DNA from: Roseiarcus fermentans
GTDB lineage: Bacteria > Pseudomonadota > Alphaproteobacteria > Rhizobiales > Beijerinckiaceae
Direction of reading: 5' to 3'
Length of the DNA: 64,000 bases
NCBI RefSeq assembly: GCF_003315135.1
Contig: NZ_QNRK01000011.1
Location: 1 to 64,000 of the forward strand
Part shown: positions 1 to 62,778 of the stretch, piece by piece
Layout: each line of letters starts with the position of its first letter
Position numbering within the stretch: position 1 is the first letter of the stretch
Notes under the pieces: model-generated
Database searches by the model: none
Seen by the model: the letters and a program-made list of their open reading frames with translations, nothing else
What the model was told of the DNA's origin: nothing
Position numbers and translations under genes: made by a program

Positions 1-100
1 ACAACCATCCCCACCTTGACTCACGTTTCGCCCCGCCGCGTCTCGCAAAATCCGCCGCCACCCGACGAGCGCACCCAACCTGTGACAATTCGGACTCACC

Positions 101-116
101 CCGGCTTGGGAGTTAC
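101..116. repeat. solitary terminus of the GTAACTCCC MITE family
   Basis: The 16 bases CCGGCTTGGGAGTTAC are the exact reverse complement of the left end of the MITE copies at 27560 and 62360. Nothing further upstream matches the body of those copies, and no partner end is seen, so this is either a solo end or the end of a divergent element that continues past the left edge. It lies 15 bases before the start of the 53-residue gene. Confidence 0.5.
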
Positions 117-131
117 AATGAGGGAACCTTC

Positions 132-27505: not shown

Positions 27506-27559
27506 ACCACAAAGGTCACGAAGAGACACGAAGCCTTCGTGGCGCTTCGTGACCTTGGT
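27506..27559. terminator. long hairpin after the hsp20-DUF1150 operon
   Basis: The arms AAGGTCACGAAG and CTTCGTGACCTT pair perfectly, with an inner CACGAAG/CTTCGTG stem. There is no T-tract. It could end transcription or be a REP-type repeat. Its right edge forms the target-site duplication of the adjoining MITE. Confidence 0.5.
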
Positions 27560-27764
27560 GTAACTCCCAAGCCGGCAGCGAACAGCGCCGTCATCGCGAG
27601 CGAAGCGAAGCGATCCAGGGCCGCTGGGCCGCTGTTGCGCCCTCTGATCGTCCCGCCGCCCTTCGTTGCGAGCAGAAGACGGAGCGATTTTTTCCGCAGG
27701 AGGCAAGCGGCGGCATGGGTTGCTTCGTCGCTTCGCTCCTCGCAATGACGGGGTTGGCAGTTAC
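27560..27764. mobile_element. MITE copy 1, 205 bp, GTAACTCCC ends
   Basis: The left end is GTAACTCCCAAGCCGG and the right end is GGGGTTGGCAGTTAC. It is flanked by ACCTTGGT (27552-27559) and ACCCTGGT (27765-27772), an 8-bp duplication with one mismatch. Subterminal inverted repeats are CGTCATCGCGAG near the left and CTCGCAATGACG near the right. It has no coding capacity and ends 92 bp before thyA. Confidence 0.85.
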
Positions 27765-27856
27765 ACCCTGGTGGTGAACTTCGTTCGGAACCGGAGGCGG
27801 CAGGGGCGCGAATCTGCTAGGAATCGCAGTTCGTCCTTCACGAGACCCAATGCCCC

Positions 27857-30620: not shown

Positions 30621-30651
30621 AAAGTGAAAAGTGACAAAGTGACAAAGTGAC
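30621..30651. repeat. tandem AAAGTGAC octamers
   Basis: Three perfect head-to-tail copies of AAAGTGAC (30628-30651) are preceded by a partial copy. The same octamer, as GTCACTTT, is the target-site duplication of the MITE cluster at 49254. The bases before it, CCGGCTTGGCAG, resemble a decayed MITE end. Confidence 0.7.
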
Positions 30652-30876
30652 AGGTTTGGACGCCCAAGTCTCTGAAAGGATAGGTCGCCTGCCAGAACGG
30701 CGCGCTGGCCGCCGCGAGCCTGACCAGCCAATTGGCCGGCGACGACAATGACCGTGACTCCCGGGCCGGTCGTATCAGGAGGGCGCCTGTCCCGGGCGGT
30801 GGCCGCCCCCGTTCGTTCGTCCGCGGACCCGGCTTCGGCGGAGGGGCGGACGGACGAAGGGAACCGGAATGTCCCG

Positions 30877-49166: not shown

Positions 49167-49261
49167 TGGGGGTCTCGTCCTCGGGAGAAGAAGTCGGGGA
49201 TGCGCGGTCCTGGCGCCGGCCGGGTTCTTACAACGGGTTAGGTGTCGAATCCTGTCACTTT

Positions 49262-49487
49262 GTAACTCCCAAGCCGGCAGCGAACAGCGCCGTCATCGCG
49301 AGCGACCCCCGGGTCGAAGAGCCCGGGGGGAAGCGATCCAGGGCCGCTGGGCCGCTGTTGCGCCCTCTGATCGTCCCGCCGCCCTTCGTTGCGAGCAGAA
49401 GACGGAGCGATTTTTTCCGCAGGAGCCAAGCGGCGGCATGGGTTGCTTCGTCGCTTCGCTCCTCGCAATGACGGGGTTGGGAGTAAC
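49262..49487. mobile_element. MITE copy 2, 226 bp
   Basis: The ends are GTAACTCCCAAGCCGG and GGGGTTGGGAGTAAC, with GTCACTTT on both sides (49254-49261 and 49488-49495). It differs from copy 1 by an internal palindromic insert of about 20 bp near 49306-49331 (CCCCCGGG and CCCGGGGGG). Confidence 0.88.
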
Positions 49488-49495
49488 GTCACTTT

Positions 49496-49721
49496 GTAAC
49501 TCCCGAGCCGGCAGCGAACAGCGCCGTCATCGCGAGCGACCCCCGGGTCGAAGAGCCCGGGGGGAAGCGATCCAGGGCCGCTGGGCCGCTGTTGCGCCCT
49601 CTGATCGTCCCGCCGCCCTTCGTTGCGAGCAGAAGACGGAGCGATTTTTTCCGCAGGAGCCAAGCGGCGGCATGGGTTGCTTCGTCGCTTCGCTCCTCGC
49701 AATGACGGGGTTGGGAGTAAC
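49496..49721. mobile_element. MITE copy 3, 226 bp, tandem with copy 2
   Basis: Near-identical to copy 2 (AAGCCGG becomes GAGCCGG), and flanked by GTCACTTT on both sides (49488-49495 and 49722-49729). The repeat period is exactly 234 bp, the element plus one octamer. Confidence 0.88.
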
Positions 49722-49729
49722 GTCACTTT

Positions 49730-49871
49730 GTAACTCCCGAGGTGGCTGTCCGCGAGGAGCCGGACAGGGCGCGCGCTGGGACGAGCGGCGTTCCGCCGCC
49801 CGGGCGCGCGAGGCGCGCACCCTCCCGTTGAGCGCAGCGATCGCCGCTCGTGCGCCCGACTTGGAAGATAC
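49730..49871. mobile_element. 142-bp MITE-like element of a second type
   Basis: It begins GTAACTCCCGAGGTGG and ends CTTGGAAGATAC, an imperfect inverted pair. GTCACTTT precedes it and GTCACGTT follows it (7 of 8). The interior differs from copies 1-3 but shares blocks with 30255-30381. The right border is inferred from the octamer. Confidence 0.6.
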
Positions 49872-49879
49872 GTCACGTT

Positions 49880-52444: not shown

Positions 52445-52453
52445 GCTAAATTG

Positions 52454-52669
52454 GTAACTGCCAAGGTGGACGCCGAAGAACGCCGTCATCGCGAGCGAAG
52501 CGAAGCGACCCAGGGGCCGCTGGGCTGCTGTTGCGGCTCGTGGACCGCCGCGCCGTCCCTCGAGCTTCGTTGCGAGCAGAAGACGGAGCAATCCTTGCAA
52601 AATGGACGCAAACTGCGTCGTGGATCGCTTCGTCGCTTTGCTCCTCGCAAGGACGGGGTTGGGAGTTAC
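52454..52669. mobile_element. MITE copy 4, 216 bp, divergent
   Basis: The ends are GTAACTGCCAAGG and GGTTGGGAGTTAC, bounded by exact CTAAATTG octamers at 52446-52453 and 52670-52677. The interior is the most divergent of the family, but keeps CGTCATCGCGAGCGAAG near the left and the matching inverted block near the right. It starts 10 bases after the GST stop. The remaining 220 bp to 52898 hold no gene. Confidence 0.88.
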
Positions 52670-52898
52670 CTAAATTGTATGGGTGGCAGTCTCGGGTTGA
52701 AGACGAACTCATGCGAGATTGACCGATCCTGCCGCTGACGCCCGCTCGTGGTCGGACACGAGCGTTCGCCGAGTGGTCGGATAAAGACCGCAATTTGCGC
52801 ACTCCGGCCGTCGCCGACCAGGGGCCGAAAGTGCACACCCGGCGCACAGCGTCCTTTGCCCTAAAGCGCAATGTCCGGCGGAGACCGCGCCTTCCGGC

Positions 52899-62195: not shown

Positions 62196-62359
62196 TGGGT
62201 CGCGACATAAGCTGCTTCGACACCCGGGAGCGACGAAACGACAGCGAGGCCGCCCTTGTCCGATCCCCTCCGTCCGCCGTCGAGCCCCGTCCGCACGCCC
62301 CAGACGGCAGGGCCGGCTGGGCGGCGCGGGGAACGGCGGGAAGCCAAATTTGTTCGCCC

Positions 62360-62563
62360 GTAACTCCCAAGCCGGCAGCGAATAGCGCCGTCATCGCGAG
62401 CGAAGCGAAGCGATCTAGGGCCGCTGGGCCGCTGTCGCGCCCTCTGGTCGTCCCGCCGCCCTTCCTTGCGAGCAAAGACGGAGCGATTTTTTCCGCAGGA
62501 AGCAAGCGGCGGCATGGATTGCTTCGTCGCTTTGCTCCTCGCAATGACGGGGTTGGGAGTTAC
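62360..62563. mobile_element. MITE copy 5, 204 bp, with exact 8-bp target duplication
   Basis: The ends are GTAACTCCCAAGCCGG and GGGGTTGGGAGTTAC, flanked by GTTCGCCC at 62352-62359 and again at 62564-62571. It is nearly identical to copy 1 and has no internal gene. The surrounding 62196-62778 holds no gene. Confidence 0.92.
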
Positions 62564-62778
62564 GTTCGCCCCGCGGCGCCGCCGCAAACCTTTGAAAAGG
62601 CCCGCTTCGCGCGAGGGAATCCAAGAGAGACCAAATGTCCCGAAACCCCGTCTCCGCCGCCCGGCGCGGACGCCCGCGGCGCCGTTGCGGAAGGCGGCGG
62701 CGAAGCCAACTCCGCGCTAAAACTAATAGTGATTGTTATATCTTGTCCGGGCCGGGCCCTGCATCGCGCCGCCGCCCC

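What the first reader, a model, noticed from the sequence alone, without database searches (positions are those of the whole stretch)
62352..62571. IS66-type MITE family with 8-bp target-site duplications
Seen directly: 204-226 bp units begin GTAACTCCC (or GTAACTGCC) and end GGGAGTTAC (or close variants). They are flanked by octamers GTTCGCCC (62 kb), CTAAATTG (52 kb), GTCACTTT (49 kb), all exact, and ACCTTGGT/ACCCTGGT (27 kb, 7 of 8). Each unit has a second, subterminal inverted block (CGTCATYGCGAG type) and no gene. Known: IS66-family transposons have GTAA ends and make 8-bp duplications. Inference: these are non-autonomous IS66-type MITEs moved by a transposase elsewhere in the genome.
Basis: partly seen in the sequence, partly recalled or inferred. 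Interest (0 to 1): 0.85.

Follow-up and report, generated by a model that had tools for sequence, protein, structure and literature searches.

The report
IS66 mini-transposons with a fixed-distance target
Short gene-less jumping DNA units, very probably moved by a larger IS66-type transposon whose end lies at the edge of this window, often land a fixed 13 bases from a short DNA motif that looks like a binding site for the DNA-bending protein IHF, and can stack up at the same spot.

Summary
Window 62360-62563 is a 204-bp unit with inverted ends and an exact 8-bp duplication. In the parent genome 38 of 57 scored end pairs have identical flanking octamers and 49 of 57 differ by at most one base; shuffled flanks give 1.0 and 1.8.

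The IS66 reading is supported. Window 1-116 is itself one end of an autonomous IS66-type element. The matching contig end (C43) carries the same octamer, AATGAGGG, and encodes an IS66 transposase C-terminus. The IS body is not assembled.

New: 29 of 52 insertions have an IHF-like motif (WATCAANNNNTTR, at most 3 mismatches of 9) at exactly -34 on one flank; each of 57 other offsets gives 0-3 of 52. A different unit in relative G010 repeats this at three of four sites with no mismatch. Sampled sites in G001 and G008, and IS66 elements outside the genus, do not. Because the motif stays beside one octamer copy, later insertions can reuse that octamer and build arrays of unlike units, as at 49 kb. 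The fixed-distance motif is firm; IHF itself and a newest-nearest-motif order are inferences.

The parts
62360..62563 (+). focal MITE, 204 bp
   Evidence: 45 near full-length copies among 47 listed genome matches (40 of 260 first-look candidates scored)
62352..62359 (.). target-site duplication GTTCGCCC, left copy
62564..62571 (.). target-site duplication GTTCGCCC, right copy
62585..62597 (-). IHF-like core TTTCAAAGGTTTG (1 mismatch of 9) at -34 from the MITE end
62389..62400 (+). subterminal inverted block CGTCATCGCGAG
62538..62549 (-). subterminal inverted block, partner (CTCGCAATGACG on +)
1..116 (-). left end of the autonomous IS66-type element (contig breaks inside it)
   Evidence: same 116 bp at C25 and C48 ends (99%); resembles the end that lies 107 bp upstream of an IS66 transposase ORF in relative G004
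117..124 (.). octamer AATGAGGG next to the IS end; the same octamer flanks the opposite IS end at C43:65697
27560..27764 (+). MITE, 205 bp
27552..27559 (.). octamer ACCTTGGT
27765..27772 (.). octamer ACCCTGGT (1 mismatch)
49228..49240 (+). IHF-like core TTACAACGGGTTA (2 mismatches of 9) beside the 49-kb array
49254..49261 (.). octamer GTCACTTT
49262..49487 (+). array unit 1, 226-bp MITE, nearest the motif
49488..49495 (.). octamer GTCACTTT
49496..49721 (+). array unit 2, 226-bp MITE
49722..49729 (.). octamer GTCACTTT
49730..49871 (+). array unit 3, 142-bp unlike element with a decayed distal end
49872..49879 (.). octamer GTCACGTT (1 mismatch)
52454..52669 (+). MITE of a second subfamily, 216 bp
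52446..52453 (.). octamer CTAAATTG
52670..52677 (.). octamer CTAAATTG
30628..30651 (-). three tandem GTCACTTT octamers without an element between them; candidate excision footprints
30665..30677 (-). IHF-like core TTTCAGAGACTTG (2 mismatches of 9) at the matching distance from the first octamer

Best explanation
These are non-autonomous IS66-type MITEs. A transposase of the single-ORF (ISBst12-like) IS66 subgroup, from an element present in several copies including one that begins at window position 116, recognises their ~16-bp ends and makes 8-bp duplications. In this lineage target choice is often directed. The element joins at a fixed place on one side of an IHF-like site: the 13-bp core, then 13 bp, then the 8-bp octamer that is duplicated. 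I infer that IHF (or a similar DNA-bending protein) bound at the core presents the octamer to the transposase. After insertion the core still lies beside one octamer copy, so the same octamer can be used again and the next unit lands between the core and the older one. That gives arrays of unlike units separated by the same octamer. Shown: ends, octamers, shared ends with an IS, fixed distance, arrays of unlike units. Inferred: IHF itself, transposition in trans, newest unit nearest the core.
For: Octamers: 38 of 57 pairs exact, 49 of 57 with at most 1 mismatch; shuffled 1.0 and 1.8. For 47 single-unit insertions alone, 32 exact and 9 with one mismatch. IS link: IS ends at 7 contig ends, 3 octamer-matched pairs, transposase C-terminus in frame at C43; a similar end 107 bp upstream of a transposase ORF in G004 that matches PF03050 and zf-IS66. 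Target: TCA at -32 in 41 of 142 flanks, other offsets 0-12; WATCAANNNNTTR with up to 3 of 9 mismatches at -34 in 29 of 52 insertions, 0-3 at each of 57 other offsets. Outside the recurrent octamer classes it is 9 of 28 against a mean of 0.65. Both element orientations occur. Three of the four IS copies (those at C13, C64 and C48) have TCA at -32. Other species: three of four G010 sites with 0 mismatches at -34 beside an unrelated MITE; a deleted G004 IS copy with 1 mismatch at -34. Arrays: some neighbouring units are identical to copies at other loci (C3, C4, C18), so they arrived separately.
Against: 23 of 52 insertions lack the motif at 3 or fewer mismatches, including window 27 kb and 52 kb; so does the IS copy at C43/C11. 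Many motif-bearing targets are copies of dispersed repeats and are not independent; only the 'other' class is. The three G010 targets share one context, and the fourth G010 site (one flank seen) lacks the motif. Sites seen in G008 (three; both flanks for one) and G001 (one flank) and one G004 site (one flank) lack it, and a G004 IS has the core shifted by 1 bp. Outside the genus: 0 of 11 elements and 0 of 11 flanks in Octadecabacter plasmids (one element is in both sets). The IS body is not in the assembly and a protein search with the G004 transposase finds nothing in this genome. At two arrays (C2, C34) the more decayed unit is nearest the motif. Whether the genome encodes IHF was not tested.
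Confidence: 0.78

Rival explanations
1. The transposase itself, or another host protein, reads the conserved target (a dispersed ~55-bp intergenic repeat with direct repeats CCGGGCG...CCGGGCGA). IHF plays no part and the resemblance is accidental.
For: 57 copies of the repeat in this genome, 14 in G001, 8 in G008, 4 in G004. Conservation runs beyond the 13-bp core. A CAA-N4-TTG palindrome could also bind another dimer. By my rough estimate (no call), a consensus as close as that of the main class could arise by chance a few per cent of the time.
Against: Targets outside the recurrent octamer classes keep the core at -34 (9 of 28 against 0.65), some closer to WATCAA than the repeat class, for example TATCAATGGCTTA with 0 mismatches. 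G010 has no copy of the repeat, yet three of its targets match with 0 mismatches.
Confidence: 0.28
2. Arrays arise by unequal recombination or slippage between octamers, not by repeated insertion.
For: Window units 1 and 2 at 49 kb are 99.6% identical to each other.
Against: Neighbouring units are often of different length or type, and some are identical to copies at other loci (one unit in C3, two in C4, one in C18, gap columns ignored). Unit 1 at 49 kb is equally close to a C6 copy.
Confidence: 0.12
3. REP/BIME-type repeats moved by a REP-associated (RAYT, HUH) enzyme rather than a DDE transposase.
For: The interior carries REP-like CGTCATTGCGAG...GCAATCC modules; the unit's DNA finds matches, in the best-listed rows mainly to that module, in 26 of 60 genomes (own included). 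It folds strongly (z -5.05).
Against: Units have precise inverted ends and 8-bp duplications, shared with IS66 elements. The exact end pattern occurs in 5 of 60 genomes (own included), far fewer than the module. RAYT enzymes make no such duplications (recalled). No RAYT search was made.
Confidence: 0.03
4. The true mobiliser is the other complete IS66 element found in this genome (C72, 3016 bp) or another transposase family with 8-bp duplications.
For: C72 is a complete IS66 with octamer GTTCGAGT.
Against: Its ends are GTAACCGGTACGA, unlike the MITE. The element at C43/C11 shares 16 bp with the MITE left end, and its other copies share the target preference.
Confidence: 0.05

Closest known systems
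IS66 family, single-ORF subgroup (ISBst12-like; ISGst1 as annotated in NC_010420)
   Same: GTAACT ends, 8-bp duplications, PF03050 transposase; ISGst1 has ends GTAACTATTCAG / GTAACTATTCAC with octamer AAAAGAAC
   Different: No motif at -34 in the elements sampled outside this genus; MITE families were not looked for there
Bacterial MITEs such as MITEPsy1 (PMC3189936, passages read) and Correia elements (PMC2229807, PMC10969869, passages read)
   Same: Short, gene-less, terminal repeats, thought to be moved by a related IS
   Different: Correia elements carry an IHF site inside the element; here the IHF-like site is outside it, in the target
IS elements inserting in REP sequences (IS1397, IS621; PMC1525189, passages read)
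   Same: Insertion directed to a dispersed extragenic repeat, with IHF discussed as a REP-binding host factor
   Different: IS66-type ends with 8-bp duplications at a fixed distance beside the motif
CRISPR spacer acquisition (recalled, analogy only)
   Same: IHF-marked, one-sided integration that duplicates a short repeat and stacks units in order
   Different: DDE transposase, transposon units, no Cas proteins, no common origin claimed

Membership tests
IS66 family | 8-bp target duplication | tested here: met
   for MITEs; three octamer-matched IS end pairs
IS66 family | terminal repeats beginning GTAA | tested here: met
IS66 family | IS66-type DDE transposase in the autonomous element | tested here: inconclusive
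   Only the C-terminus is present in this genome's assembly (judged by eye against L219 and G004 sequences, not scanned against a family library). Relative G004 has a 372-aa partial ORF with PF03050 at 1.2e-19 but 158.6 bits against the NCBIfam cut-off of 180
IS66 family | accessory tnpA and tnpB genes (classical members) | tested here: inconclusive
   Cannot be seen in the unassembled IS. Its complete relative L219 (1576 bp) has one large ORF, and the pairs found are 1454-1676 bp; absence in the ISBst12 subgroup is recalled
MITE | short, gene-less, inverted ends, many copies, ends shared with an autonomous element | tested here: met
MITE | mobilised in trans by the related transposase | not testable with these tools
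   Inferred from shared ends and target motif; identical copies at different loci suggest recent movement
REP/RAYT system | no target duplication (recalled) | tested here: not met
   8-bp duplications
REP/RAYT system | RAYT (HUH) enzyme in the genome | not tested
   no search made
IHF binding site | match to WATCAANNNNTTR | tested here: met
   with up to 3 mismatches of 9; consensus as quoted in PMC3281130
IHF binding site | bound by IHF | not testable with these tools
   needs gel shift or ChIP

The most novel reading that the evidence does not exclude
A lineage of IS66 transposons has evolved IHF-guided, fixed-distance, one-sided integration. Each event duplicates the octamer next to the IHF site and leaves the landing pad intact, so insertions stack in time order like a fossil record (newest nearest the pad). 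Excision may leave countable octamer scars, as at window 30628-30651.
Probability: 0.45. Interest if true: 0.82.

Novelty: new variant of a known kind. Interest (0 to 1): 0.64.

Why it matters
How simple insertion sequences choose targets is mostly unresolved (recalled). Here the insertion point is set to the base, in over half of the insertions, by a short motif 13 bp away that looks like an IHF site, and the same spacing appears beside an unrelated unit in a second species. That makes the role of a host DNA-bending protein in IS target choice directly testable, suggests a site-directed integration tool, and explains how bacterial MITEs can form tandem stacks that share one duplication.

Tried and rejected
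Complete autonomous IS in this genome: not found. A protein search with the G004 transposase gave 0 matches from 26 candidates in G000. PF03050 found C72, C12 and a weak C19 match, none with the MITE end pattern in the fetched flanks. The body seems missing from the assembly.

Generality: IHF-like spacing was sought in single-ORF IS66 elements outside the genus. Twelve of the 213 plasmid records with a match and five of eight viral loci were scanned. The scan accepted only ends starting GTA with octamers at most one base apart: 10 of 17 loci gave a pair, all with exact octamers, and 7 did not. With L219 that is 11 elements, 0 with 3 or fewer mismatches at -34. In Octadecabacter plasmids (four long stretches fetched) 0 of 11 flanks, scored with WATCARNNNNTTR. 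The classical IS66 C72 also lacks it. So the targeting is not claimed for the family.

Unoccupied copies of the target repeats were seen instead.

Excision footprints: 4 of 46 class targets without an element at the expected place have the octamer directly repeated, against 8 hits over 59 other offsets. In two of the four (L052, L086) an element follows the second octamer. A first script missed part of the GTCAC class and gave 2 of 28; the second replaced it. Suggestive only, and the fetched sample is biased towards loci with elements.

Polarity: scored by hand; not a formal test. Ends were found by intact sequence, which can bias it.

Flank sets: 31 of 173 flanks were dropped as tandem by a crude pattern before one search's count of 142. 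The 52 insertions come from the 61 end pairs (53 distinct insertions or arrays, one without both flanks); unpaired ends are not in it. The 57 pairs include neighbours in arrays, which are not independent; one search gives single-unit insertions.

RNA role: no Rfam match in the window at gathering scores. The fold is strong, but that follows from the inverted ends and REP-like modules.

Papers: searches for IS66 with MITE, with integration host factor, for target specificity, ISBst12 and IHF target selection listed no title or abstract start that reports IHF-spaced IS66 insertion. Only seven of the listed papers were opened, by passages. A search for CGTCATTGCGAG gave one plant paper.

Full report
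Check of the observation. The unit at 62360-62563 begins GTAACTCCCAAGCCGG, ends CGGGGTTGGGAGTTAC and has GTTCGCCC on both sides. The units at 27, 49 and 52 kb are as described. In the whole genome (6.79 Mb, 90 contigs; the window is C11:1-64000) GTAACTSCCRAGSYGG has 168 hits with up to 1 mismatch and the reversed control 3. A DNA search scored 40 of 260 candidates and listed 47 matches, 45 of them near full length.

Duplications. From fetched loci 61 end pairs were extracted. After removing one with a missing flank and three composite pairs, 57 remained: 38 have identical octamers, 11 differ by one base, 3 by two, 5 by four or more. Shuffling right against left octamers gives 0.99 exact and 1.8 with at most one mismatch. 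Counting only the 47 single-unit insertions, 32 are exact, 9 differ by one, 3 by two and 3 by more. The duplications are real.

The mobiliser. The exact end pattern GTAACTSCCAAGSYGG is genus-restricted in the sample searched: 97 hits in this genome, 7 in G010, 3 in G008, 2 in G004, 1 in G001 and none in the other 55 of 60 genomes. In G004 (its contig C415 is identical to CAIZGR010000415.1, an uncultured Rhizobiales bacterium) the end GTAACTGCCAAGCCGGGGTGAGTCCGAA lies 107 bp upstream of a transposase ORF that matches PF03050, DUF6444 and zf-IS66. Window 1-116, on the minus strand, begins GTAACTCCCAAGCCGGGGTGAGTCCGAA: it is the same kind of IS end, and it recurs (99%) at the ends of contigs C25 and C48. 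A search for its flanking octamer joined to an end found one exact place, C43:65689, at a contig end whose last 172 bp encode, on the opposite strand, what reads by eye as an IS66 transposase C-terminus. The same 172 bp (99-100%) end contigs C64, C16 and C13. Octamers pair three left with three right ends: C11/C43 AATGAGGG, C48/C16 GGGCGACC, C25/C13 AGCCGCCC; C64 has no partner. The body between is not assembled, and a protein search with the G004 transposase finds nothing in this genome.

Relatives of the IS. A complete relative in a Pseudorhodobacter MAG is 1576 bp with ends GTAACTGCCCAGCATG, exact octamers and one 486-aa ORF; it passes the NCBIfam IS66 cut-off (270 bits against 180). Of 17 plasmid and viral loci scanned for ends starting GTA, 10 gave end pairs, all with exact octamers; 9 of the 10 left ends fit GTAACTnnnnAG. 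An Octadecabacter element has ends GTAACTCCCAAG, the first 12 bases of the MITE. A classical IS66 in this genome (C72, 3016 bp) has different ends.

The target. In 142 distinct flanks (31 of 173 dropped as tandem) TCA lies exactly 32 bp outside the element end in 41; other offsets give 0-12. This is the core of the IHF consensus WATCAANNNNTTR (as quoted in PMC3281130, passages). At -34, 19 of 142 flanks match with at most 1 mismatch of 9 and 36 with at most 2, against window rates of 3e-5 and 5e-4 per position. By insertion (52 insertions or arrays with both flanks) 29 have at most 3 mismatches at -34 on one side; each of 57 other offsets gives 0-3. Split by octamer: GGGCG class 11 of 12, GTCAC class 8 of 10, TTCCG class 1 of 2, other 9 of 28, the last against a mean of 0.65 at other offsets. 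The end facing the motif reads AAGCC 16 times, AAGGT twice and AACCC 11 times, so both ends can face it and the motif belongs to the target, not the element. The focal MITE obeys the rule (core at 62585-62597) and so does the 49-kb array (core at 49228-49240); the 27-kb and 52-kb units do not. Of the four IS copies, those at C48/C16, C25/C13 and C64 have TCA at -32 on a seen flank; C11/C43 has not.

The rule in relatives. In G010 an unrelated MITE (GTAACTCCCAAGGTGGG) at three sites has AATCAATGGCTTG, 0 mismatches, at -34; the three contexts resemble each other, and a fourth site, with one flank seen, lacks it. In G004 an internally deleted IS copy has AGTCAATGGTTTA (1 mismatch) at -34 on one flank and a 3-mismatch core at -34 on the other, but its flanking octamers do not match. 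A second G004 copy has the core shifted by one base, and a third, with one flank seen, lacks it. Three G008 sites and one G001 site, mostly with one flank seen, lack it. Outside the genus the rule was not seen: 0 of 11 elements and 0 of 11 Octadecabacter flanks.

What the targets are. Many GGGCG-class targets are copies of a dispersed ~55-bp repeat (length judged by eye): 57 hits in this genome, 14 in G001, 8 in G008, 4 in G004, none in the other 7 of 11 genomes. Of 94 class targets in fetched DNA, a sample biased towards elements, 48 are followed at once by an element end (at most 3 of 9 mismatches) and 46 are not. Four of the 46 have the octamer directly repeated. One of these is at window 30628-30651, with three octamers and no element between; such repeats may be excision scars.

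Arrays. Reading from the motif, several sites show intact units first and decayed ones later, with the octamer decaying too: C38 205, 182 and 118 bp with 0, 1 and 2 octamer mismatches; C9 205 then 142 bp (0, 1); C3 193, 205 and 219 bp (0, 1, 1); window 226, 226 and 142 bp (0, 0, 1). By my hand count the more decayed unit or octamer is farther from the motif at seven sites (C38, C24, C3 at 25 kb, C13 by octamer only, C9, C26, window), nearer at two (C2, C34), and five are unclear (C14, C17, C18, C3 at 116 kb, C68). One unit of the C3 array, two of C4 and one of C18 are identical to copies at other loci (gap columns ignored), which argues for separate insertions.

Mechanism. Shown: IS66-type ends and duplications, an IS of the same ends in the genome, a fixed spacing core-13 bp-octamer, stacking of unlike units on one octamer. 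Inferred: the IS transposase moves the MITEs in trans; IHF binds the core and presents the octamer; stacking is ordered in time. An analogy with CRISPR spacer acquisition (IHF-marked, one-sided, repeat-duplicating) is recalled and meant only as analogy.

Literature. The passages read in PMC10969869, PMC2229807, PMC3189936, PMC9769881, PMC8024623, PMC1525189 and PMC3281130 touch on MITEs, IHF sites inside Correia elements, REP-directed IS elements and IS66 with 8-bp repeats; none of these passages describes IHF-spaced insertion beside the target. PMC11043490 (DNA-binding proteins and IS1/IS5 insertion upstream of bgl) was seen in the search listing only.

Noticed in passing
G000 contigs C1, C22, C32, C42, C55, C60, C66 and C9 (L034, L036, L037, L053-L061, L074): Another multi-copy element is inserted at the GCAATCC motif inside the REP-like module of MITE copies (read by eye at C1, C32, C42, C60, C66); 185 bp of its end are identical at seven contig ends. 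It looks like an IS that targets REP-like palindromes.
   Followed up: partly
window 30628-30677: Three tandem GTCACTTT octamers beside an IHF-like core without an intact element between: possible excision scars.
   Followed up: partly
G000:C2:29154-30315, C3:36481-36934, C21:120244-120592: The ~55-bp target repeat occurs in clusters, on C21 at a regular 159-bp spacing; its own function is unknown.
   Followed up: no
window 62360-62563, interior: The MITE interior holds REP-like CGTCATTGCGAG...GCAATCC modules; the unit's DNA finds short matches, in the listed rows mainly to that module, in 26 of 60 genomes, own included.
   Followed up: partly
L177 1-1724 (G004:C415): The IS in G004 sits 74 bp after the end of an ORF that looks like a biotin-dependent carboxylase subunit (judged by eye).
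   Followed up: no
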